Shown here: piece by piece, positions 1-10,975 of the stretch
Layout of the letters: each line of letters opens with the position of its first letter
How positions within the stretch are numbered: the first letter of the stretch is position 1
From: Deltaproteobacteria bacterium RIFOXYA12_FULL_61_11
GTDB lineage: Bacteria; Bdellovibrionota_F; JAHFAK01; YA12-FULL-61-11
NCBI GenBank assembly: GCA_001799195.1
Contig: MGSU01000122.1
Coordinates: 1 to 10,975 of the forward strand
Direction: 5' to 3'
DNA: 10,975 bases
Notes under the pieces: generated by a model
Databases searched by the model: none
What the model was told of the DNA's origin: nothing
What the model saw: the letters and a program-made list of their open reading frames with translations, nothing else
Made by a program: the position numbers and the translations under genes

Positions 1-129
1 CCCGATCCCTATGACCGCTATCCCCAAGATCCCACCGAATGGCGGGATACGGATGGCGATGGCATTGGCGATCATGGGGACGTGGCCCCCTATCTTTCCG
101 GCATCTGGGGCGACCTCGACGGCGATGGG
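1..129 (+). repeat. TSP3 (thrombospondin type-3) Asp-rich repeats, 5' fragment
   Basis: The translation has the D-x-D-x-D-G-x-x-D pattern of Ca-binding TSP3 repeats (DTDGDGIGD at 46-72, then GDLDGDGF at 109-132), with the P-x-D-P-x-E-W spacer seen again at 1249-1267. It shows that the coding frame enters the window from upstream. Confidence 0.75.
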
Positions 130-3100
130 TTCAGAAACGATCAGGAATGCGATGACTTCAACCCCCACGTTTTCCCCGGCGCTGTGGAACTCTGTGGCGA
201 CGGTATCGATCAGGACTGCGATGGCGAGGATCTGCAGTGCCCCGGTCCGACAATATGCCTCACTGCCGGCACCATCGAACTGCAACGTTATCAAAGCACC
301 ACGCTTTCGTGGACCTCGACCAATGCCCAGACGTGCAGCCTCGATCAGGGGCTCGGGCCGGTGGGGCTGTACGGCTCCCTGACCATCGCCCCTCAGCGGG
401 CGACCCGCTATACCCTGACCTGTGAGAACGAGCTCGCTGCCTCGACCGCCTCGGTGCTGATCAACGTCATCCCCTGGTCGGACCGCACGCCGTTCGTGCA
501 CTATGATTTTGAGGGTTTTGAGCACGGCGGATTGCTCATGAATACCGTCGTCAATCGCTTCCACGGTCTCGACGAGTATGGCTCGATCTATCCGTTCGAA
601 CTCTCGCCGGACGAGACTGCCGGCCTGTTCCTGCGCGGCGAAAGCGGCGCTCTGGCCAGCGTGCAGGTCCAAGACACCTGGTTCGTCAACATGTCGCAGG
701 GTTATTCCCTATCGTTCAGAGTTCTCGATTCCCCCGACGCCAACGTGCGGGTGCAACGCATCTTCAACCCCGAGCAAACCGGCTACTTCACCGTCGAGAT
801 TCTTTCGTCCTTCAATGCCATCGATTTCACGGTGCATTACACCTCGGTCGAGCCGCAGGTTGACACGTCCTTTGATTTCTCCACCACCGTACCCTGGCCT
901 GATGACTGTACCTTCGACTTCACCATGGCCGTCACCGGAGATGAGCTCGACCTGTACATGAACGACCAACGCCTGGCCCACCTGACCATGGACGGACATG
1001 TTTCCCAGCCTTGGGGCAGCATGGTTCTCCAGGCCGGTGCCTCGTTCCCCCCCGGCCAGGACGATCCCGGGGTCAAGCTCGACGATATCATGCTCTACGA
1101 TCGCGGCATCACCGAGCTCACCGCCTGCCACAATCATGGCTATGCCTCGTTCAATTACCTGACCCAGCGCTGTGTCCACGCCGACGATCCCGCCGCGTAT
1201 ACCGACACCGACGAAGACGGCTATCTCGATGTCGACGACCTTTTTCCCGAGGATCCTGCCGAGTGGTATGACTTTGATAATGATGATATTCCCGATAATC
1301 AGGACCCCGATGATGATAACGATGGGATCCTCGATGCCGACGACTGCTCGCCGCTCCTCCCCTGGCTCCAGGCCAGTCTGGATACCGATGGGGATGGACA
1401 GTGCAATAATGGGGACCTTGATGATGACAACGATCAACTGAGCGATGCAGACGAGGCCCTGGTCGGCACCGCTCCCCTCGATCCGGATACCGATGGGGAC
1501 GGCATCGGGGATGGTTTTGATGACTTTCCATTAGATACAATGCTCTGGGGAGATCTTGATGGAGACAGTTTTCGCAATGACAATGACTGCAACGACTTTG
1601 ACGCACGGATCGCACCGGGCCTCTTTGAGATCTGTGGTGACGGCATCGACCAAGATTGCGACGGCTTGGATTATCCGTGTCTAATCCCCGAGGGTTGGAT
1701 AGCGATTTCTTCTGTGTCTGCAACCGTTGGCGAGGTGGTAACTGTAAGTTGGGTGTCACATCATGTGCAAACCTGCGAGTTGTATCCGTCACCAGGTGGT
1801 CCTGTGACAACTGTGGGAACACTGGACTACCTTGTGAACCGAACGACGGTCTTCACGCTCTTTTGTAAAGGTGATTTTGGCGCGACCTCAGCATCTGCCC
1901 GGGTCGATGTGAACCCGATAGAGGAGGGGTTGCAGATCCTGTATGATTTCGAGCAGGAACCTGGTATCGGCGAGATCGTGCTCGACAAATCGGGACATGG
2001 CTATGATGGTGAAGATGTTTTGGCAGTCAACGAAATATTCTACGATCAATCGAGTGATAATTCACTATATCGTTTTTTTGATTATACTTCTGAGTTAGTA
2101 ATTCTGGATGCGCGTACAATTTCCTTCGAGCAAGGTTTTTCCTTCTTCTTTGACCTGATAGAGATTCAACCTGGGCAAGGTGTTACCCTCCTTCTCGAAG
2201 ATGAGACGAGCATTTTTCGGTTGCGTTTTGTAAAGCATTATAATAATTCGCAACTCGTGTTCTCGATCTATTCCAAGAATACCGACCCGATGGTGTTGGT
2301 CGAAGTCTACTCTTCAACCACGACGATCGGTTATTTCGAGGTGCCAATTTCTCTCGGTTTCTTGCTCCTGCATGATCATATTTCACTATTCGTCAATGGC
2401 CGACGGCAGTTGAGTCGGACTATTGGAACCGGGCATGACCCGATCATCACAGGTGAGATCCGTCTCCTCGCAGCACCTGCCGTGATCATCGACAACCTAC
2501 GCATCTATAATCGATTTCTTGAGGAAACCCGAGCCTGCAACTTCGCGGGCTACCCCTATTTTGACTATGCCACGAATTCATGCTTGACGCATGACGAGCT
2601 CACCTTGGGAAACGATACCGATGGTGATGGCTATCTCGACTTACTCGATCATCTCCCCTTTGATCACGAGGAATCGACAGATACTGACCGTGATGGCTGG
2701 GGCGATGTCTCCGATGACGATGATGATAACGACGGCATCATCGATGAAGAGGATCCAATGCCGCACATCGCGAACGGATGGTTGGATGCCGACAAAGACG
2801 GAGAGTTTGATCATCTCGATCTTGACGATGACAATGATGGTATTCCAGATGAAGATGATTGTAGTTCTTACGATGCGAACGAGTTGGCAAGTATAGATAC
2901 GGACCTTGATGGTGTATGTGATGATATCGATCAAGACGATGATAATGATGGGTATCGCGATACCCAAGATACCTTCCCACGACTCGCTGGTGAGTGGTCG
3001 GACTCAGATCAAGATAGCATCGGCGACAATGCTGACGCTTTCCCACGCGATGCTTATGGTGGTTATGATCAAGATCATGATTACATCGCCGCTGATTTCG

Positions 3101-6100
3101 ATCAGAATGATCTATCGAGTGACCTACTTGTATATTTCGATTTTAATTATGCTTATGGCGACATGATTAAAAATCATGCTGTACCATCATCATTTGGGCA
3201 TGGGTATTCCTTTGAATTAACTCAGGATGGCATCAAAGATAGTGCATTGTCTTTGAAGAACGGCGCGTCTTATCTTGAGTATGTCTCTGATGAAATACAC
3301 AATAGGACTTCCTTCTCGATGTTGTGCTGGTTTAATGTCAGCGAATTGAATGGTGATTCGCTCGTTATCAGGATCGCTGATACCTTCAGTTTTCTTTTGC
3401 AAGATGACAATATCCTTATCGATGATGGTGGGCAGCAATCAATCATAAAAGAACGGATTGAGATATTCAGATGGTATCACCTTGGTCTCATTGTAACTGA
3501 AGATACTGCTCGGTACTATCTTGACGGTCAGTTGATCTTAGAGATACCAGTGTATGACATCACCACGGGTAACTTATTACAAATAGGTGATACCGATTCG
3601 CTTAACCATATACATTTCGATGAGTTCATGTTATTTCATGGTGCTATACCGCTGCACACCCTGCTGCATCAGTATGAGAAGGGTGTGCTATCGGCATTAA
3701 CGAAGGGTATTGAGCTTGAGGGTTATACCTTGGTAAGGAAAGGGGTGCAGGGGGCCATTGAGATATCCGAGAAATTATCACATGGTTTTGTGACTATCTC
3801 TTTAGATGGATCATCAATTCAAGAAGATCATGCTATAGGCATCAGGGACATCGTCCTTCAAGACATTACCACCGATGCAACAATACAATACCTTGGCTTC
3901 GATTTTGAAATATCACCGCATCTATTTTGGCCTGTTCGGAATGATAGCTTGATTACTGTCACGGTAGATCTAGATGATCAAAAACGTTTGCTTACTATGG
4001 TTTATCCTGAATTATTGCATGGGAATATAGGTGTCGTACGCAAAGACATTGTGACGGGCGAAGGTTCAATCCTTCAAGATTCATATGCAAATGGTCGATT
4101 GATCTTCACCATACCCAATGCCTCGGTTTTTGAACTGGCCTTTCTTGAATATTCAGGTACGTGGCGAAAAACCACAACCAGTATGAGATCATATCATCTT
4201 CCACCACCAGCACCACCACTATCAGTCCAGGAACATACGTTAAGGGATGTACTACAGATTCCTGATATTCTAGAGATTACAAGATCACTTGAATATGATG
4301 CCTATCTGCTCAATAACAGCCGATTTGTATCAAAAACCCACTACCTCGACGATAGACCATATGTCGTTGTAAAAGATAGTATATTGCCATTTTCTCTGAG
4401 CGGTGCTTTACCTGAAATTAGCGTGTTCCCTTTTGTCGAACACATGCTTGGAAGTGCAAGTATCGGCAAAATAATTGAATATCCAAGGGGTCGCGCTGCA
4501 ACGACTATAAATATAAAGTTCCCGATTGTTCATGCAACCATTAATGAACCAGGACCGTATTTTTTTCACAACTATCCCTTCGGTGGCGATAGTGAGACAT
4601 ACTCTAATGATTGGCGCTCATGTACTTCAACTGTTTCTCAAGCAACTGATAATATTGTAGTACAATGTTTGACGAACAGGCAGGTAACCATTCAGGTTCC
4701 CATCTCATTCGAAGATGATCCTGGGTATCAATGGTGTATTGATGAAATGGCACAAAATCGGAAATGTGATAAAGATTCTATTTGGCCTACGCTTCTTTGG
4801 TATCGAGGGACTACGAAATATCAAAAGGTCTCGAATGTTGCAGATATCAATATCGATAACCAATCATTGGTACCAATCCCCACTATTGATAGAAGCGTCA
4901 CGATCATCCCATTTCGATACACCATACAACAAGAGGTAAAAGACGCGTATCTCGAAATCTATAAACTATCCTCGACTTGGTGGCAAAGGAAAACGTTAGT
5001 CGCCTCATTGCGTCTCCCACAGGGTAGTTCGACTGGTGTAATACATTGGGAACTTGGCAATGTGGGTGGGGGGAATACTATCCTTTTCGGCCAATATATC
5101 GCCACCATGAAACTGACACACGAAGCTCATAGCACTGATCATGGATCTTATTGTGGTATATCAAGGTATTTCGAGGAAGAAGAGATATTTGGTATCTTTC
5201 CTGGTTCTGATGATCCAACTGAAGAGACCTATTTCTACAATGATCGTTGTTTGGTCGGATATCCTGGCGCATACAGTGAGGCAGATTTTGATTTACCGGA
5301 ATCAACGAGGAATTACGGCAGCCTGCTTTTTTGTATGCAGAATTGTAATATCGATAATTGGGTGGAAATACAAGCTGTGAATGATATTCCCAGCCAAGAA
5401 ATAGCGAAAGACAACACCAAGGCAACATTTGTAAGTTCAGAACCGTTCACTGCATACGCAAGAACGGAACCCACGACCTTATCTGCCAACATCATCTGGA
5501 CAATAAAACCCCGAAGTGGTCTTATGCCAACGGATTTTTCTTCATTTATCCAACACGGTTCCGATCTAGAACTCATCCCGTTGTCGAAATTCCTACTGCC
5601 AAGACCAGTAGCCATCCCGTACCGACTCAAGCCAATCTCATTTGATCTTATTGCGTCCCTGGATGACCAGCATTTCGACCGACTGACCATCACGCAAGAC
5701 AACCTCGATCAACTGCGACAAGAGTATATCGACGGTTCCATTTACCCTTCGAAAAACGTCGGCGCTGAAAATGGTCGTGATTATTTCGTCAATCAAGATA
5801 CCTATCAGGACCCAGGGGATTATCCATTTAGTGTAATAAAATCAAAATTCGTAAGCGGAAAATCAGGTGACTATTCCTGGTCATGGTTCGAGATCGCCGA
5901 CAAGTTGCAACAGGTACGTGACAGCATCGTGAATGATCAAAATATTTATACTAAAAGACTTGATATCATTGATGGCAATGCTTATCGGAATCCAAGCTAC
6001 AATCTATATGTCTACCAAATGCAAAAAGCCGATGAAAACACGAAAAGTCCCCATCTAATTGGATGTGCCGTCGATGTCGATGTGGCAGATTATGACAACA

Positions 6101-6267
6101 GTGGTTTCCGGCGAGAAAAGGCTGATTGGATGATTTTGAAGGGAAAAGCCAAGGCCCTCGGCGCCTGTGTCGAGCCTGCCGAATACAAGGGTCGTAAGGC
6201 AAACTACACATATCTTCATATGGATTGGCGGCACGGTACCGGTGCGTGCACACAACCCGGGTGGTGA
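1..6267 (+). CDS. Giant modular surface/exported protein with C-terminal M15-type peptidase domain (5' partial)
   Basis: The frame is open from base 1 and already encodes Asp-rich TSP3 sequence there, so the true start is upstream and the GTG at 82 is internal. At least 2088 residues lie in the window, ending at tandem in-frame TGA stops (6265-6270). Domain order: TSP3 (1-129), MopE motif, Ig-like, LamG-like, TSP3, then the same four again 480 residues later, then a third LamG, an unrecognised beta-rich region (3691-5870), and an M15 zinc peptidase domain (about 5940-6264). Ca-binding TSP3 arrays, paired cysteines and LamG folds indicate an extracellular or cell-surface location; the signal peptide would be upstream of the window. 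The peptidase tail suggests action on peptidoglycan stem peptides. GC content falls sharply after about 1.5-1.7 kb inside the same frame. Role (adhesin, wall remodelling or contact toxin) is inferred; the frame and the end domains are seen directly. Confidence 0.9.
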   Translation, partial: PDPYDRYPQDPTEWRDTDGDGIGDHGDVAPYLSGIWGDLDGDGFRNDQECDDFNPHVFPGAVELCGDGIDQDCDGEDLQCPGPTICLTAGTIELQRYQSTTLSWTSTNAQTCSLDQGLGPVGLYGSLTIAPQRATRYTLTCENELAASTASVLINVIPWSDRTPFVHYDFEGFEHGGLLMNTVVNRFHGLDEYGSIYPFELSPDETAGLFLRGESGALASVQVQDTWFVNMSQGYSLSFRVLDSPDANVRVQRIFNPEQTGYFTVEILSSFNAIDFTVHYTSVEPQVDTSFDFSTTVPWPDDCTFDFTMAVTGDELDLYMNDQRLAHLTMDGHVSQPWGSMVLQAGASFPPGQDDPGVKLDDIMLYDRGITELTACHNHGYASFNYLTQRCVHADDPAAYTDTDEDGYLDVDDLFPEDPAEWYDFDNDDIPDNQDPDDDNDGILDADDCSPLLPWLQASLDTDGDGQCNNGDLDDDNDQLSDADEALVGTAPLDPDTDGDGIGDGFDDFPLDTMLWGDLDGDSFRNDNDCNDFDARIAPGLFEICGDGIDQDCDGLDYPCLIPEGWIAISSVSATVGEVVTVSWVSHHVQTCELYPSPGGPVTTVGTLDYLVNRTTVFTLFCKGDFGATSASARVDVNPIEEGLQILYDFEQEPGIGEIVLDKSGHGYDGEDVLAVNEIFYDQSSDNSLYRFFDYTSELVILDARTISFEQGFSFFFDLIEIQPGQGVTLLLEDETSIFRLRFVKHYNNSQLVFSIYSKNTDPMVLVEVYSSTTTIGYFEVPISLGFLLLHDHISLFVNGRRQLSRTIGTGHDPIITGEIRLLAAPAVIIDNLRIYNRFLEETRACNFAGYPYFDYATNSCLTHDELTLGNDTDGDGYLDLLDHLPFDHEESTDTDRDGWGDVSDDDDDNDGIIDEEDPMPHIANGWLDADKDGEFDHLDLDDDNDGIPDEDDCSSYDANELASIDTDLDGVCDDIDQDDDNDGYRDTQDTFPRLAGEWSDSDQDSIGDNADAFPRDAYGGYDQDHDYIAADFDQNDLSSDLLVYFDFNYAYGDMIKNHAVPSSFGHGYSFELTQDGIKDSALSLKNGASYLEYVSDEIHNRTSFSMLCWFNVSELNGDSLVIRIADTFSFLLQDDNILIDDGGQQSIIKERIEIFRWYHLGLIVTEDTARYYLDGQLILEIPVYDITTGNLLQIGDTDSLNHIHFDEFMLFHGAIPLHTLLHQYEKGVLSALTKGIELEGYTLVRKGVQGAIEISEKLSHGFVTISLDGSSIQEDHAIGIRDIVLQDITTDATIQYLGFDFEISPHLFWPVRNDSLITVTVDLDDQKRLLTMVYPELLHGNIGVVRKDIVTGEGSILQDSYANGRLIFTIPNASVFELAFLEYSGTWRKTTTSMRSYHLPPPAPPLSVQEHTLRDVLQIPDILEITRSLEYDAYLLNNSRFVSKTHYLDDRPYVVVKDSILPFSLSGALPEISVFPFVEHMLGSASIGKIIEYPRGRAATTINIKFPIVHATINEPGPYFFHNYPFGGDSETYSNDWRSCTSTVSQATDNIVVQCLTNRQVTIQVPISFEDDPGYQWCIDEMAQNRKCDKDSIWPTLLWYRGTTKYQKVSNVADINIDNQSLVPIPTIDRSVTIIPFRYTIQQEVKDAYLEIYKLSSTWWQRKTLVASLRLPQGSSTGVIHWELGNVGGGNTILFGQYIATMKLTHEAHSTDHGSYCGISRYFEEEEIFGIFPGSDDPTEETYFYNDRCLVGYPGAYSEADFDLPESTRNYGSLLFCMQNCNIDNWVEIQAVNDIPSQEIAKDNTKATFVSSEPFTAYARTEPTTLSANIIWTIKPRSGLMPTDFSSFIQHGSDLELIPLSKFLLPRPVAIPYRLKPISFDLIASLDDQHFDRLTITQDNLDQLRQEYIDGSIYPSKNVGAENGRDYFVNQDTYQDPGDYPFSVIKSKFVSGKSGDYSWSWFEIADKLQQVRDSIVNDQNIYTKRLDIIDGNAYRNPSYNLYVYQMQKADENTKSPHLIGCAVDVDVADYDNSGFRREKADWMILKGKAKALGACVEPAEYKGRKANYTYLHMDWRHGTGACTQPGW
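148..240 (+). other. MopE-type metal-binding motif, copy 1
   Basis: Four cysteines in the pattern C-D-D-F-N-P...E-L-C-G-D-G-I-D-Q-D-C-D-G...C match the short putative metal-binding motif named after the Methylococcus MopE copper protein (Pfam Cu-binding_MopE). It sits between TSP3 sequence and an Ig-like domain. Metal identity cannot be read from sequence. Confidence 0.8.
262..471 (+). other. Ig-like beta-sandwich domain, copy 1
   Basis: The segment has an L-S-W-T-S-T-x-A-x-T-C strand (304-336) and a closing Y-T-L-T-C strand (409-423), the usual layout of small bacterial Ig-like domains found in repeats of secreted proteins. The two cysteines (334, 421) could pair. It is a spacer or binding module and carries no catalytic signal. 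Confidence 0.6.
490..1180 (+). other. LamG/concanavalin-A-like domain, copy 1
   Basis: The domain starts with a Y-D-F-E strand (502-513) and ends with K-L-D-D-I-M-L-Y-D-R followed by a Cys pair (1126, about 1174). The LDDI-x-LYDR closing strand is typical of LamG_3-type jelly rolls that bind glycans or act as spacers in surface proteins. No ligand can be assigned. Confidence 0.65.
1195..1545 (+). repeat. TSP3 Asp-rich array, copy 1
   Basis: Repeated D-x-D-x-D-G-x-x-D-x-x-D units (DTDEDGYLD, DDDNDGILD, DTDGDGQ, DTDGDGIGD) separated by F-P and E-W spacers. This is a Ca-binding rod that would stiffen the extracellular part. The repetitive GAT/GAC codons also create long false antisense frames rich in Ile and Val. 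Confidence 0.85.
1588..1680 (+). other. MopE-type metal-binding motif, copy 2
   Basis: Same four-Cys arrangement as copy 1, with CGDGIDQDCDG conserved exactly and the intervening residues diverged. First Cys is 1440 bases after that of copy 1. Both copies keep all four cysteines and the acidic residues. Confidence 0.8.
1696..1914 (+). other. Ig-like beta-sandwich domain, copy 2
   Basis: V-T-V-S-W-V-S...T-C (Cys 1774) and F-T-L-F-C (Cys 1864) occupy the same places as in copy 1. Sequence between them has diverged strongly and the codons are markedly more AT-rich than in copy 1. Confidence 0.55.
1930..2586 (+). other. LamG/concanavalin-A-like domain, copy 2
   Basis: Opens with L-Y-D-F-E (1939-1953) and closes with I-I-D-N-L-R-I-Y-N-R and a Cys pair (2536 and about 2581) as in copy 1. 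The sample line 2041-2100 inside it is only 28% GC by hand count, the lowest sampled in the window. Confidence 0.65.
2605..3110 (+). repeat. TSP3 Asp-rich array, copy 2
   Basis: A longer array than copy 1, with units such as DTDGDGYLD, DDDDDNDGIID, DLDDDNDGIPD, DQDDDNDGYRD and DSDQDSIGD. It runs into a degenerate start of a third super-repeat near 3061. Ca binding is expected from the family; the last units have lost some of the Asp/Gly consensus. Confidence 0.85.
3124..3690 (+). other. LamG-like domain, copy 3
   Basis: Starts with L-V-Y-F-D-F (3130-3147) and contains a W-Y-H-L-G-L-I-V...A-R-Y-Y-L-D-G-Q strand pair (about 3472-3534), then I-H-F-D-E-F-M-L-F-H-G near 3610-3642. The W-x-H-L...Y-L-D-G pattern is the clearest LamG_3 signature of the three copies. 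It lacks the terminal Cys pair of copies 1 and 2. Confidence 0.7.
3691..5870 (+). other. Unrecognised mostly beta-rich region of the giant protein
   Basis: About 725 residues in which I recognise no family with confidence. The first part (3691-4170) looks like alternating beta strands. A short Pro-rich linker (PPPAPPLS, 4201-4224) separates it from the rest. Around 4918-5115 a segment with Y-x-I-Q...A-Y-L-E-I-Y-K-L...W-E-L-G...G-Q-Y-I-A-T-M-K-L resembles the FlgD-type beta sandwich often placed before C-terminal modules; this is a weak match. From 5650 a charged helix-like stretch (D-Q-L-R-Q-E-Y-I-D) leads into the peptidase domain. Composition is AT-rich throughout. Confidence 0.45.
5940..6264 (+). 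other. Peptidase M15 (zinc D-Ala-D-Ala peptidase-type) catalytic domain
   Basis: The S-x-H-x-x-G-x-A-x-D signature is complete (SPHLIGCAVD, 6046-6075), giving two zinc ligands, His at 6052-6054 and Asp at 6073-6075, seven residues apart as in the family. The third ligand is the His of Y-L-H-M-D-W-R at 6217-6219. Upstream, A-Y-R-N-P-S-Y-N (5980-6003) matches the substrate-binding Arg stretch (family form Y-R-S-P-x-Y-N), with Arg at 5986-5988. Known members cleave D-Ala-D-Ala or related peptide bonds in peptidoglycan. Nothing follows the domain but about ten residues, so it is the protein's true C-terminal module. All recognisable zinc ligands are present, so it is probably active. Confidence 0.82.
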
Positions 6268-6292
6268 TGAGTAAAACATGAATGGTGAATAT

Positions 6293-6297
6293 GGAGG
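6293..6297 (+). promoter_or_regulatory. Ribosome binding site of the HEAT-like gene
   Basis: GGAGG (extended to GGAGGTGA) lies six bases before the ATG at 6304 and fixes that start. The 36-base gap after gene 1 shows no promoter or terminator, so the two genes are probably cotranscribed. Confidence 0.8.
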
Positions 6298-6303
6298 TGA
6301 CGA

Positions 6304-7146
6304 ATGAACGCAATCGAGACAAGAATCGTCCTTTGTTGCACAATACTGCTGTTCTTTGCTCCCAAACATGGTTTCGCTGAAACAACGAAATCCACCGAAC
6401 AGTACCTGGCCGAATTCAAGCAAGCACTCGGGTTGCATGAACGACGCCACCTCGTGAAGGAGGTATTTTCTCTCCCTGATGTCAAAAAGAAGAAAGAGAT
6501 TCTTCTGAAAGTTGCCTATTTTCTCAACGATTTTTTAGCAGAGAGGATCAATACTCGGAAAATGGATGATGAGTATTATCAATATCAAGAATTTGGGAAT
6601 ATGGTCGTCTGGACACTCGTATATCAGCACCTCCCCACGGATCCAAAGGAATTCTTGCCCCTCGAGGCGAAGGAACTGGAACCACTCCTGGGGCAACCAC
6701 TTCCCATAACTCCCGAGGAATACCTGCCGGTACTGATTGGCAGTCAAATCGTGGGGGAAGAGGCTAATGGAATAATCACCAGCGGAGGTGAAAAATCGGT
6801 CGTCCCTCTGGTCAATCAATATGATCGCTACCGTACGATGAAGTACCTTGCAGGGATGAGACATGGAATTATCGGCTATTTGGACACCATCTATTTACGA
6901 TGGCCACTGGATACCATTCATAAGGAACTAATATACAAGACCTTCATTTCTGCATTAGATGACCCATACTGGGGAGTCCGTGAATTGGCCGTGGATTGCC
7001 TCATAGATAAACCCACGATCAAACCAGATCACCTCAACAAGATCAAAGACCTCGCGAAGAACGATCCCGGGCAGTATGAGGGCAAGTATGTCGTACGGGA
7101 TGCGGCCATCAAATTGCTGAAAAAGCATGGTATTGAAATAAAATAA
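6304..7146 (+). CDS. Exported HEAT-like repeat protein, candidate immunity partner
   Basis: 280 residues. The N-terminus is a plausible Sec signal peptide: a basic residue at 7, a hydrophobic stretch from about 8 to 19 and a G-F-A cleavage site after residue 25. No lipobox is present. The rest is mainly helical and charged. The C-terminus (about 217-280) carries a HEAT/ARM-like pair: D-P-Y-W-G-V-R-E-L-A-V-D-C-L, then a second helix pair with V-V-R-D-A-A-I-K-L-L-K-K. The middle (about 95-215) is not recognised. It follows the M15-tailed gene by 36 bases with a strong ribosome binding site and no promoter between. HEAT-type proteins occur among polymorphic-toxin immunity proteins, and export would place it where an M15 enzyme acts, so an immunity role is reasonable inference. 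A scaffold or folding partner is the alternative. Confidence 0.85.
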   Translation: MNAIETRIVLCCTILLFFAPKHGFAETTKSTEQYLAEFKQALGLHERRHLVKEVFSLPDVKKKKEILLKVAYFLNDFLAERINTRKMDDEYYQYQEFGNMVVWTLVYQHLPTDPKEFLPLEAKELEPLLGQPLPITPEEYLPVLIGSQIVGEEANGIITSGGEKSVVPLVNQYDRYRTMKYLAGMRHGIIGYLDTIYLRWPLDTIHKELIYKTFISALDDPYWGVRELAVDCLIDKPTIKPDHLNKIKDLAKNDPGQYEGKYVVRDAAIKLLKKHGIEIK

Positions 7147-7148
7147 TG
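7144..7148 (+). promoter_or_regulatory. TAATG stop/start overlap between genes 2 and 3
   Basis: The TAA stop of gene 2 (7144-7146) shares its last A with the ATG of gene 3 (7146-7148). The preceding 20 bases have no purine-rich ribosome binding site. In gene 3's frame there is a TGA at 7134-7136 and no other ATG, GTG or TTG between, so this is the first usable start. Translation would depend on coupling, if it happens. Confidence 0.6.
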
Positions 7149-10100
7149 ATCATTCCCGGCACGACCTATGCCGGTAGGGCACTCAACCTCATCGGCGACC
7201 TCGATGCTCCCGAGTTGATGACGATCGAGGAGGTCGCGGGGAACGTGCTTATCGATGGCATCGACGAACCCAGCGGGTCGGTCTTCGCACCCCTGCTGCG
7301 CGAGATCACCTCCTCGACCATCGCCTTGGCCGAGCTCGAGCTGAGCGGCGACCTCTCCCTGGTCGGCAGCACAATCGCCCTGGAAAAACCCCTGCGTTGC
7401 CGCAACCTCCAGCTCCACAACAGCACCTTGACCCAACGGGCCACCAACCTCGTGCGGGACTTCGCGCTGCGCGTGGAGGCGGAGACGATCGTGGTCGCGG
7501 CCGACAGCACCGTCGATGTCTCGGGCAAGGGCTATCTGCCCGGTCGGACGGTAGGTAACATTGCGCCGCCGAATGCCGTGTACTTTGGTGGCAGCTACGG
7601 CGGCCTTGGTGCCTCCTATCCCACGGTCGATGCCGTCATGCCGACCTATGGTTCCTTTGCACGGCCCGAGCACCTGGGTAGCGGATCCGGACAGGTCGAT
7701 GGCGGCAGTGGCGGTGGGTTGGTCACGATTGTGGCCGACAGCCTTTTCCTGGATGGCACCATCCTCGCCAACGGCGATGCAGGACCGAACAAGAAATCCG
7801 GAGGCTCCGGCGGTGGGATTCTTGTCGAGGTCGGCGAACTGCGCGGTGAGGGGTCCCTCCAGGCCATTGGCGGAGAGGTCAGGTTCTATGATCACTACAA
7901 CGGCGGCGGCGGCCGGATCGCCGTCTATTACGATAGCAGTGCTGATTTCAGCGGCACCTTCTCTGCGCACGGCGGCTTGGCCTACAACTGGCACGGCGGC
8001 GCGGGTACTGTCTATGTGCAGGATCGCGCCGAGCCCTACGGCACGCTGATCGTCGACAACCACGGCGGCACGCCGAACAAACCCTGGTCTACGCCGCTCC
8101 CAAGCGTGGGCAGCGGGTTCTCGACTACTCTGGGTGCGACGACCCTGATGAACAGTGCTGTCTCGTTCCCGACCTCGCTGATCGGCCTGCGGCTCAATCC
8201 CAATACTGCGCAGAACAGTACGTTTGCCATCCTCGGAAATGATGCTCACACCCTCCTGACCGATCCGGAGGACGGCGAGCTGACCGCAGTCGCCGCCGCG
8301 GGGGATGTCTATGCCGGGGTCTTAGTGCTCAAGGGCCTCAAGGTGCTCGGCAAGGCCGAGCTCGCTACCATGGACCGCGTGGTGATCGTGCCGACGGAGC
8401 AGCCCGAGCAGACGGGCGTCAATCTTGCCGGTCGCGTGCGCACGCCGAGCCTGATGCTTCCGGGCGAAATCCTGGTCGGCAGCAGTCTCAATGTCGAGGG
8501 CCAGGTCGTGGCCTCTGAGCTGCACACCATCCGCGGCGCCCAATCGGACGTCACCCTCAGCGACACGGCCACGCTCGTGGCGCCGAACTTGCGTTCCATC
8601 GAGGATTCGTCCTTCCATCTGCCCCGCGTGGAGGTTGCAGGCAACCTCACCCTCACCACTACCTCGCTCTGGCTGGATGCGCCGGTGCAAAGCAGCGTCG
8701 CCGGGGCCTTGACCCTGGCGGCCAGTTCCCTCTGGCTCGAGCAGGGCGTGCAGGGTGGCAGCCTGACGCTACAGGACGGTAGCTTGTTGGGCCTTACTCC
8801 GAGCACCGAGAGTCTTGTCCATCGCCTGGACCTCGACCTTTCGGGTCCGGTGCAGATCGACTCCTCGAGCGAGCTGCGCGCCGATGGCGCCGGGTATCGC
8901 GGCGGCCGGACCTTGCAGAACCAGCCGATCACCCTCGACGCGGCCGGCAGTCATGGCGGCGTGGGAGGGCGGGGCGGCGCTGGCGAGGTGATGTCGACCT
9001 ATGGCAGCTTTGCCGAGCCATTATTCCCGGGCTCCGGAGCGGCGCACTCCGAGCGCTACAGCAACATGCCCGGCGGCGGCTTCATCCGGATCAAAGCGCC
9101 GTCCGTGGTGCTCGAGGGCCTGATCAGCGCCGATGCCGCGGCCGAGGATATCTATCAACATTGCGGCGGCAGCGGCGGCGCCATCGTCCTTGAGGTCGGG
9201 ATCCTCAGCGGCGCCGGGCTGCTGCGCGCCAACGGCATGAGCGACCTCACCGCGTGCTCAGACAACAACGGCGGCGGTGGCCGCATCGCCGTCCTCGCCG
9301 AGGACTTTTCCTTCACCGGCGGCCTCGAAGCCCGCGGCGGGAAGTCGAACTTCCCCGCTGGCGGCGCCGGCACCGTGTTTGTGAAAACCTCCGACCACCT
9401 CTATGGCGAGCTGTTGGTCGACAACGGCGGGGCCGAAGGTTGGCCCACCGTGCTGCCGGCCATCGGCAGCGGCAGCATTGCAGGGCTTGCCGCCGACCGA
9501 CTCGAGGTCACGGCCGACCTGGTCCCACTCTCGCTGATGGGACTCTATGTGTGGCCCGACATTTCGGAGCCGAGCGATGATACCCAGCTCATCCGGGTTG
9601 TCGGGAATGAGGCTCACGCTCTCCTGACCGATCCGGCCGTGGACCTCACGCTCAGGGCCGAGGTCGGTGATACGTATCAAGGCGTTGTGCGCCTCGACGT
9701 CCTGACCGTACGCGGCGGGGCCGTCTTGCAGACCGAGGACTGGATTGTGGTTGATGATCTCGACGTGTCCGGTGACGGCGGGGTCGAGGCACCGAACCTG
9801 GAGGTGCCGATCTACGGGATGATCCACACTCCCGAGGTGCGGTTTACTCGGACGGACCAACCTCCTGGGGACTTCGTCGCCGAGGTGCTGTATACTGAGC
9901 GGGAATTGTGGAACTATTGGTTCGGCCCCTTCGATCGGAAGGAGTTGATGACCGTGCAGGTGCAGGAAAGCGCAGAGAAGGCAGCCTGGTTGTCAGAGCT
10001 TGAAGACGAGGAGCCGATCCTGGTCGCGGCGCTCGACCTCAAGACTTGTCCGCTCACCGGCAAGCCGGTGCAACCGGGCGATGTAATTATGGGCATGGAC

Positions 10101-10928
10101 CCTGTGTACCAGTACGACACCCTCGACCGCGTGACCAAGGTCACCGACCCGCTGGGGTTCCAACAATATTCCTATCACGCGCAGCGTGGGACGTTGGAAG
10201 AGATTTTTGACAGTCAGAATAATGCACTGACTTCGTTCAGCTATGATACCCTGTCCCGGTTGACGACGATTACCTATCCCAATGGAATGATTTGTAATTA
10301 TACCTACGGTTTGGATCACCGCCTGGCGAGCATTGTCTATACCTTGAACGACGCGGTATTGGATTCGTTTATTTATTCCTACGATGAAGTCGGGAACATT
10401 TCGCGCATCGACCGGCCGGGTTGGGCTGTGGCGTATTCGTATGATTTGAATAACCAGCTCATCGCTACCGAATACGAGGGCAACACGACGATGCCCGACG
10501 AGTGGTATTCCTACGACGCGGTCGGCAACCGGCTCTCAAGCCATCTGTCCGATACCTACGTCTACGACGAGCTGAACCGCTTGCTCGAAGATGATCAGCA
10601 CTGGTACGAATGGGACGACAATGGCAACCTGACCCTCAAGGGCAACAAGGCCGATGGTTCGTTCATGACCCTCACGCATGACGCTGAGAACCGCCTGCGC
10701 CGGATCACCAAGTCCGACGGCACGATGATCGAGTATGGCTATGACGCCCGAGGCAGGCGGGTTGCCAGGTCGGTCAATGGTATGGTCGAGCGGTACCACT
10801 ACTCAGGAAACGACGTGCTGTTTGATACGAACGAGGATCCTGCCCTCACGACCAGGTATATCAACCTACCCGGCGCGATCGATCAGAAGTTGTATGCTGT
10901 TCAGCACCGATTTTCGCATCACGAATAA
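7146..10928 (+). CDS. Glycine-rich filament-repeat protein with short RHS/YD array, apparently truncated at both ends
   Basis: 1260 residues. The first ~95 residues match the linker between the protein's own two large repeat units, so it begins mid-module. Two glycine-rich beta-repeat units follow (about 7485-8390 and 8850-9755) with G-G-S-G-G and N-G-G-G-G-R-I-A-V motifs, as in large surface filament proteins. A transition (9756-10106) leads to RHS/YD repeats (10107-10880). It has no signal peptide, although such proteins are normally exported. It stops shortly after the R-Y-I-N-L-P-G segment, where RHS proteins usually continue into an LGS-containing stretch, the conserved D-P-x-G-x-x-x-G core end and a variable toxin tail; none of these is seen. 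GC is high, unlike genes 1 (3' part) and 2. It may be a displaced 3' fragment, a silent cassette or a decaying gene; the frame itself is intact. Confidence 0.8.
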   Translation: MIIPGTTYAGRALNLIGDLDAPELMTIEEVAGNVLIDGIDEPSGSVFAPLLREITSSTIALAELELSGDLSLVGSTIALEKPLRCRNLQLHNSTLTQRATNLVRDFALRVEAETIVVAADSTVDVSGKGYLPGRTVGNIAPPNAVYFGGSYGGLGASYPTVDAVMPTYGSFARPEHLGSGSGQVDGGSGGGLVTIVADSLFLDGTILANGDAGPNKKSGGSGGGILVEVGELRGEGSLQAIGGEVRFYDHYNGGGGRIAVYYDSSADFSGTFSAHGGLAYNWHGGAGTVYVQDRAEPYGTLIVDNHGGTPNKPWSTPLPSVGSGFSTTLGATTLMNSAVSFPTSLIGLRLNPNTAQNSTFAILGNDAHTLLTDPEDGELTAVAAAGDVYAGVLVLKGLKVLGKAELATMDRVVIVPTEQPEQTGVNLAGRVRTPSLMLPGEILVGSSLNVEGQVVASELHTIRGAQSDVTLSDTATLVAPNLRSIEDSSFHLPRVEVAGNLTLTTTSLWLDAPVQSSVAGALTLAASSLWLEQGVQGGSLTLQDGSLLGLTPSTESLVHRLDLDLSGPVQIDSSSELRADGAGYRGGRTLQNQPITLDAAGSHGGVGGRGGAGEVMSTYGSFAEPLFPGSGAAHSERYSNMPGGGFIRIKAPSVVLEGLISADAAAEDIYQHCGGSGGAIVLEVGILSGAGLLRANGMSDLTACSDNNGGGGRIAVLAEDFSFTGGLEARGGKSNFPAGGAGTVFVKTSDHLYGELLVDNGGAEGWPTVLPAIGSGSIAGLAADRLEVTADLVPLSLMGLYVWPDISEPSDDTQLIRVVGNEAHALLTDPAVDLTLRAEVGDTYQGVVRLDVLTVRGGAVLQTEDWIVVDDLDVSGDGGVEAPNLEVPIYGMIHTPEVRFTRTDQPPGDFVAEVLYTERELWNYWFGPFDRKELMTVQVQESAEKAAWLSELEDEEPILVAALDLKTCPLTGKPVQPGDVIMGMDPVYQYDTLDRVTKVTDPLGFQQYSYHAQRGTLEEIFDSQNNALTSFSYDTLSRLTTITYPNGMICNYTYGLDHRLASIVYTLNDAVLDSFIYSYDEVGNISRIDRPGWAVAYSYDLNNQLIATEYEGNTTMPDEWYSYDAVGNRLSSHLSDTYVYDELNRLLEDDQHWYEWDDNGNLTLKGNKADGSFMTLTHDAENRLRRITKSDGTMIEYGYDARGRRVARSVNGMVERYHYSGNDVLFDTNEDPALTTRYINLPGAIDQKLYAVQHRFSHHE
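7176..9755 (+). repeat. Two ~455-residue glycine-rich repeat units with preceding linkers
   Basis: Landmarks recur 1362-1368 bases apart: G-x-G-Y at Tyr 7533/8895, G-G-S-G-G at 7800/9165, N-G-G-G-G-R-I-A-V at 7899/9267, L-L-T-D-P at 8253/9621 (16 identical bases there) and Asp 8373/9738. Linkers also correspond: A-P-L-L-R-x-I at 7287 and A-P-N-L-R-x-I at 8580; N-L-x-G...P-x-L-M at 7185 and 8421. The second linker is about 42 codons longer and has its own small duplication built on S-L-W-L. A third linker starts at about 9756 (E-A-P-N-L) and breaks off before the RHS part. Confidence 0.82.
10107..10880 (+). repeat. RHS/YD repeat array
   Basis: At least six YD-type units: Y-Q-Y-D-T-L-D-R-V-T, F-S-Y-D-T-L-S-R-L-T, Y-S-Y-D-E-V-G-N-I, Y-S-Y-D-A-V-G-N-R, Y-V-Y-D-E-L-N-R-L and Y-G-Y-D-A-R-G-R-R-V. 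RHS repeats build the beta-sheet shell that encloses a C-terminal toxin in complete proteins. This array is about 260 residues, much shorter than a full RHS shell, and it is not followed by a core-end motif. Confidence 0.9.
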
Positions 10929-10975
10929 CCGTCACAGAAAAGATGCCGCGTTGCGACAAGTCTACGAGAAAATGA
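10929..10975 (+). other. 3' window edge, no complete gene
   Basis: Forty-seven bases after the RHS stop. No hairpin terminator is visible. A frame starting at ATG 10894, overlapping the end of gene 3, is open to the window edge (27 codons). It is too short to assign and has only a weak upstream purine stretch. Confidence 0.3.

What the first reader, a model, noticed from the sequence alone, without database searches (positions are those of the whole stretch)
7146..7484. Gene 3 begins inside its own repeat unit, without signal peptide or ribosome binding site
Residues about 14-95 align with the linker between the two later units (N-L-x-G...P-x-L-M; A-P-x-L-R-x-I), so the N-terminus is the middle of a module. 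The start is a fortuitous-looking TAATG overlap. This is expected for a displaced 3' segment or a silent cassette that must recombine into an expressed carrier.
Basis: partly seen in the sequence, partly recalled or inferred. Interest (0 to 1): 0.6.

Follow-up and report, generated by a model that had tools for sequence, protein, structure and literature searches.

The report
Stranded fragment of a toxin-carrier gene
Gene 3 is a leftover middle piece of a large secreted carrier protein of the Rhs toxin kind, cut off at its front by a newly acquired toxin tip and immunity gene and at its back by a mobile element, so it records how such weapons are reshuffled and is unlikely to be a working gene.

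Summary
Gene 3 (7146-10928) starts in the stretch between two repeat units: residues 1-84 match residues 436-515 of the same protein (score 105; 1,000 shuffles reached at most 59). The first unit, about residues 62-417, is complete, so the cut lies in the linker. Gene 3 has no visible signal peptide and no Shine-Dalgarno site; gene 2 has a good one. Composition changes at 7155 (support 7147-7172), at the gene 2 stop. Gene 1's first 1.5 kb and gene 3 have native codon usage; the block between them, with gene 1's C-terminal part and gene 2, does not. Contig C188 of the same genome repeats the anatomy. A relative in another phylum joins unit, YD repeats, RHS core and tip in one frame; gene 3 lost core and tip to a multi-copy mobile element at about 10905. 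Gene 3 is best read as a displaced, doubly truncated carrier remnant. The 'silent cassette' half is not: gene 3 has no tip, shares no usable DNA with gene 1, and no carrier with matching units was found in this 87%-complete assembly.

The parts
1..6267 (+). Gene 1: carrier protein, 5' end cut by the contig end; Cu-binding MopE-like, laminin-G-like and thrombospondin-type-3-like repeats; Asp-rich (TSP3-like) stretch at about 1203-1520
   Evidence: GC3 change point at 1512, support 1215-1518
5650..6267 (+). C-terminal tip of gene 1, probably an M15/LAS-type zinc peptidase-like domain (SPHLIGCAVDVDV...YLHMDW) acting on peptidoglycan; weak evidence
   Evidence: motif read by eye; Pfam Peptidase_M15_4 E 0.13; PHROG endolysin family E 1.1e-4; model failed, pLDDT 33
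6304..7146 (+). Gene 2: secreted HEAT-like protein, probable periplasmic immunity protein; Shine-Dalgarno GGAGG at 6293-6297
   Evidence: signal peptide by eye; no homologue found
7144..7148 (+). TAATG overlap of gene 2 stop and gene 3 ATG; composition break at 7155 (support 7147-7172)
7146..7328 (+). Gene 3 residues 1-61: inter-unit linker, homologous from residue 1 to the linker at residues 436-515
   Evidence: low-confidence region in the model
7329..8396 (+). Glycine-rich beta-solenoid unit 1 of gene 3 (residues about 62-417), complete
8397..8828 (+). Linker between unit 1 and unit 2 (residues about 418-561)
8829..9752 (+). Glycine-rich unit 2 (residues about 562-869)
   Evidence: identity of the two units 40%
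10095..10904 (+). YD/RHS repeats (residues about 984-1253), cut short before the RHS-associated core
   Evidence: Pfam RHS_repeat E 8e-18; homologue L116 continues into RHS core and tip
10905..10975 (+). End of a multi-copy mobile element (start between 10899 and 10905); holds the gene 3 stop codon TAA at 10926-10928
   Evidence: same sequence at the ends of contigs C35, C157, C217, C220, C327 with different flanks

Best explanation
Gene 3 is a displaced remnant of a large secreted carrier protein. Ancestrally a native GC-rich carrier gene ran on through glycine-rich solenoid units, YD repeats, an RHS core and a C-terminal tip, as a relative still does. A foreign block holding a different carrier C-terminus with its tip (gene 1 from about 1.5 kb) and its immunity gene (gene 2) entered this region. 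It pushed the old 3' part away from its start and signal peptide, so that part now begins abruptly at the gene 2 stop. A mobile element inserted at about 10905 and removed the RHS core and old tip. Shown: the internal match, the composition and codon break, the truncation at both ends, the relative with core and tip, and the second locus. Inferred: that the 5' part of gene 1 and gene 3 were once one gene, that the exchange took place in the TSP3-like repeats of gene 1, the order of the two events, and that gene 3 is now functionless.
For: Internal match to residue 1. GC change point 7155, support 7147-7172, gain in log-likelihood 30.6. Codon-usage distance to a native sample: 0.12 for gene 1 bases 1-1500 and 0.12 for gene 3, against 0.23 for gene 1 from 2 kb and 0.19 for gene 2. 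Contig C188: carrier with native 5' part, foreign tip (0.18), secreted immunity-like gene with AAGGAGG, then within about 70 bases a GC-rich carrier segment (0.12) that starts in mid-module, matches the main carrier (36%, E 2e-32) and holds no Met codon in 263 codons; GC change at 7466 against a stop at 7452. L116 (another phylum) aligns with gene 3 from residue 724 to 1245 and continues into RHS core, DPLGL and a tip. L123 has TSP3 repeats and a glycine-rich unit in one protein. Element end at five other contig ends. DNA relics of the same core at C27 (87% over 94 bases), C316 (85% over 74) and C5 (75% over 69). C-terminal displacement in Rhs genes is described (PMC2935791; PMC8125069).
Against: Gene 1 and gene 3 share no homologous modules or DNA, so their common origin is not shown; in enterobacteria the displaced part shares a near-identical core with the main gene (PMC2935791). 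The frame of 1260 codons is intact, which would be unusual for very old debris. The 5' end of gene 1 and everything after 10975 are outside the contig. A TAATG overlap can permit re-initiation.
Confidence: 0.74

Rival explanations
1. Gene 3 is the remnant of a separate neighbouring Rhs carrier, unrelated to gene 1, whose 5' end was lost by an ordinary insertion or deletion; no tip displacement took place.
For: Gene 1 and gene 3 share no module or DNA similarity. Other relics of the same core lie scattered in the genome, some next to transposase fragments, so plain decay of such genes is common here.
Against: The break lies within a few bases of the immunity gene stop, and C188 shows the same order of carrier, tip, immunity gene and stranded carrier segment, with a segment that does match its own main carrier. 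Native codon usage on both flanks of a foreign block.
Confidence: 0.15
2. Gene 3 is a silent reservoir that is maintained because recombination can fuse it to an expressed carrier, as shown for the Salmonella orphan rhs tip (PMC3967940).
For: Intact frame; position downstream of a carrier; lack of initiation and export signals, as in orphan modules (PMC3150448; PMC3967940).
Against: No tip and no immunity gene in it, 3' end broken by a mobile element. The longest match with gene 1 is 25 bases at 84%, against 522 bp at 95% in Salmonella. No other carrier with such units found in the assembly.
Confidence: 0.05
3. Gene 3 is a working gene, translationally coupled to gene 2 through the TAATG overlap, whose product acts in the cytoplasm or is exported by an unrecognised route.
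For: Open frame of 1260 codons with native codon usage; stop-start overlap; first solenoid unit complete.
Against: No Shine-Dalgarno site while gene 2 has one; homology runs through residue 1; the last residues come from a mobile element; none of the homologues looked at starts here, and the unit lies inside long open frames, several with signal-peptide-like N-termini.
Confidence: 0.04
4. The junction at 7146 is a chimeric join made by the metagenome assembler.
For: Sharp composition change; draft genome of 342 contigs.
Against: C188, an independent contig, has the same order and a similar break after the immunity stop; the join falls at a biologically expected point.
Confidence: 0.02

Closest known systems
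C-terminal displacement of Rhs genes in enterobacteria (Jackson et al. 2009, PMC2935791)
   Same: A new tip replaces the old one, and the old 3' part is shunted to a silent place downstream of the intact gene; dissociated parts show a GC peak; Rhs repeats involved.
   Different: There the displaced part keeps its tip and a core identical to that of the main gene. Here the stranded part is a carrier core of about 1,250 residues without tip and without any similarity to gene 1.
Orphan cdiA-CT/cdiI and rhs-CT modules (PMC3150448, PMC3967940)
   Same: Fragment downstream of a carrier-immunity pair, without initiation or export signals; some orphans are broken by mobile elements.
   Different: Orphan modules are toxin plus immunity pairs marked by VENN or DPxGL; gene 3 has neither tip, marker nor immunity gene.
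Large proteins with the same glycine-rich solenoid units, in one case with YD/RHS repeats (L116 in another phylum; units in L114, L115, L117, L119-L123)
   Same: Same unit (up to 42% identity) and, in L116, the same order of unit, linker and YD repeats.
   Different: In the relatives the unit is internal to a longer open frame; gene 3 lacks an N-terminal part and the RHS core and tip that L116 has.

Membership tests
Orphan (displaced) Rhs/CDI tip module | Lies directly downstream of a carrier and its immunity gene | tested here: met
   Gene 3 overlaps the stop of gene 2, which follows gene 1; that gene 2 is an immunity gene is inferred
Orphan (displaced) Rhs/CDI tip module | Lacks translation initiation and export signals | tested here: met
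   No Shine-Dalgarno motif, no visible signal peptide; sibling segment in C188 has no Met codon
Orphan (displaced) Rhs/CDI tip module | Begins with core sequence near-identical to that of the upstream main gene | tested here: not met
   No protein match and no DNA match above 25 bases at 84% between gene 1 and gene 3
Orphan (displaced) Rhs/CDI tip module | Carries a toxin tip after a VENN or DPxGL marker and its own immunity gene | tested here: not met
   Frame ends in a mobile element before the RHS core
RHS/YD-repeat proteins | RHS repeats | tested here: met
   PF05593 E 8e-18, four stretches; TIGR01643 E 1.8e-12
RHS/YD-repeat proteins | RHS-associated core and DPxGL cleavage motif | tested here: not met
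   Absent from gene 3; present in homologue L116 directly after the point where gene 3 breaks off
M15/LAS peptidase tip (gene 1) | Zinc-binding motifs SxHxxGxAxD and HxH, and fold | tested here: inconclusive
   Motifs by eye; Pfam E 0.13, PHROG endolysin E 1.1e-4; model unusable

The most novel reading that the evidence does not exclude
In this poorly sampled phylum, large secreted toxin carriers are reshuffled inside their own modular bodies. Foreign tip-immunity blocks enter at the calcium-binding TSP3-like repeats and strand whole carrier cores of a different module type, so that carrier bodies are exchanged as well as tips.
Probability: 0.25. Interest if true: 0.55.

Novelty: new variant of a known kind. 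Interest (0 to 1): 0.4.

Why it matters
It shows what looks like tip displacement, described for enterobacterial Rhs and CDI genes, at two loci of one genome from a phylum with only two held genomes, in carriers built from TSP3, laminin-G and glycine-rich modules. If the exchange point in the TSP3-like repeats is confirmed, the carrier body as well as the tip is open to exchange. It also warns annotators that long intact frames of this kind can be stranded debris.

Tried and rejected
A viral-contig scan gave one short 38% match. The plasmid search with gene 3 listed only matches in the YD part; gene 2 and the gene 1 tip gave none. PADLOC, Rfam and tRNA searches were empty. PDB sequence searches gave nothing significant. 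AlphaFold2 of the gene 1 tip failed, pLDDT 33. Foldseek with the gene 3 model gave no match at E 0.001 or better; VIA-align placed the HMW1 secretion domain first, Z 12.2, rmsd 4.8 over 220 residues, which suits a beta-solenoid and says nothing on function. A comparison with the L127 tip failed on frame and was not repeated. The idea that the N-terminus cuts through a folded unit was rejected. Contigs C56 and C57 showed only YD scraps, in C56 among transposase fragments, and no carrier.

Full report
What was asked.

Where it lies. The window is a complete contig, C122, of a draft genome of 4.64 Mb in 342 contigs, 87% complete. Only two genomes of its phylum are held. Gene 1 (1-6267) is cut by the contig start. 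Gene 2 (6304-7146) follows with a strong Shine-Dalgarno site, and gene 3 starts in a TAATG overlap with its stop.

The observation. Residues 1-84 of gene 3 align with residues 436-515, score 105, while 1,000 shuffles reached at most 59; the match runs to residue 1. An in-frame TGA at 7134-7136 excludes a longer start. In homologues with tandem units, such as L114, L115 and L117, the repeating unit corresponds to residues about 76-417. The AlphaFold2 model is ordered from residue 62 to 416 (mean pLDDT 63 overall). The first unit is therefore complete, and the cut lies in the linker. Against linkers of other species the N-terminus does not score above chance, so this point rests on the protein's own internal repeat.

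The break. The best GC change point between 6304 and 8000 is 7155 with support 7147-7172; third-position GC changes at 7148 from 0.52 to 0.79. Codon usage of gene 1 bases 1-1500 and of gene 3 is close to that of a sample of long native genes (distances 0.12 and 0.12), while gene 1 from 2 kb (0.23) and gene 2 (0.19) are further off. Within gene 1 the third-position GC changes at 1512, support 1215-1518, in the Asp-rich TSP3-like repeats; when all positions are used the support is 1498-2034, so this second boundary is less certain.

What gene 3 was part of. In 386 genomes, mostly one per family, 12 had a match. In the homologues examined the glycine-rich unit lies inside long open frames, for example 5067 aa in G354, 3376 aa in G417 and 2292 aa in G681. 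L116 of G685, in another phylum, aligns with gene 3 from residue 724 to 1245 and then continues with the RHS core (YYYVADGLGS), DPLGL and a C-terminal tip. L123 of G681 has six TSP3 repeats and a glycine-rich unit in one protein, which makes a carrier with both kinds of module plausible. No homologue examined starts at gene 3's first residue, but several, L116 among them, are cut by contig ends.

The 3' end. The last 71-77 bases of the window recur at 86-95% identity, in whole or in part, at the ends of five other contigs (C35, C157, C217, C220, C327), each with a different flank. This is most simply the end of a multi-copy mobile element, and the gene 3 stop codon lies in it. Gene 3 thus lacks the RHS core and tip that L116 has.

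A second instance. Contig C188 holds a carrier frame (1-6843) related to gene 1, a secreted protein with AAGGAGG (6856-7452), and then a GC-rich frame (7425-8213, to the contig end) that holds TSP3 and laminin-G sequence. That segment matches the carrier upstream (36%, E 2e-32), starts in mid-module and has no Met codon in 263 codons. The GC change lies at 7466, support 7357-7487. About 70 bases of other sequence lie between the stop and the first recognisable module. The same order at two loci favours a recurrent process.

Relics. Pieces of the gene 3 core lie in C27 (94 bases, 87%), C316 (74 bases, 85%) and C5 (69 bases, 75%), and shorter scraps in C56 and C57, partly next to transposase-like fragments. 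Several copies of this carrier probably once existed here and decayed.

What is known. Displacement of Rhs C-termini by new tips, with the old ones shunted downstream, is described (PMC2935791; PMC8125069). Orphan CDI and Rhs fragments mostly lack initiation and export signals (PMC3150448), and in Salmonella an orphan tip was re-fused through 522 bp of 95% identity (PMC3967940). Gene 3 resembles these in position and lack of signals. It fails two defining features, a shared core with the main gene and a tip with immunity. It arose in a similar way, as far as can be told, but it is not an orphan tip module.

Conclusion. Gene 3 is most likely a displaced and doubly truncated remnant of a secreted carrier (0.74). 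That gene 1's 5' part and gene 3 were one gene is an inference; the main rival is a separate neighbouring carrier broken by plain insertion or deletion (0.15). The silent-cassette reading has little support (0.05). Dating, expression and selection could not be tested with one genome.

Noticed in passing
window 10905-10975; C35 end, C220 start, C157 start, C327 end, C217 start: End of an unidentified multi-copy mobile element (CACCGATTTTCGCRTCWCG..TAACCGTCACAG) at which six contigs of this assembly break; two sequence variants; its interior was not found.
   Followed up: partly
L026 (C188) 1-8215: Second locus with carrier, foreign tip, secreted immunity-like gene and a stranded GC-rich carrier segment without any Met codon.
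   Followed up: yes
L012 10105-10198; L014 7803-7876; L013 6887-6955; L079 about 3517-3582; L080 about 3459-3494: Short relics of the gene 3 core scattered in the genome, some beside fragments of what looks like a REP-associated-type transposase.
   Followed up: partly
window 5650-6267: Gene 1 tip with SPHLIGCAVDVDV and YLHMDW motifs, M15-like by eye; the Rhs tip of L127 in another phylum has similar-looking motifs (NSHHYIGEACDL, DHWHLQL).
   Followed up: partly
window 1-6267: The three MopE/laminin-G/TSP3 repeats of gene 1 fall in GC from about 61% to 42% along the gene, as if assembled from sources of different origin.
   Followed up: no
L125 4164-5804 (minus strand): A short YD-repeat protein of 547 aa with its own signal-peptide-like N-terminus, a self-sufficient counterpart to gene 3.
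   Followed up: no
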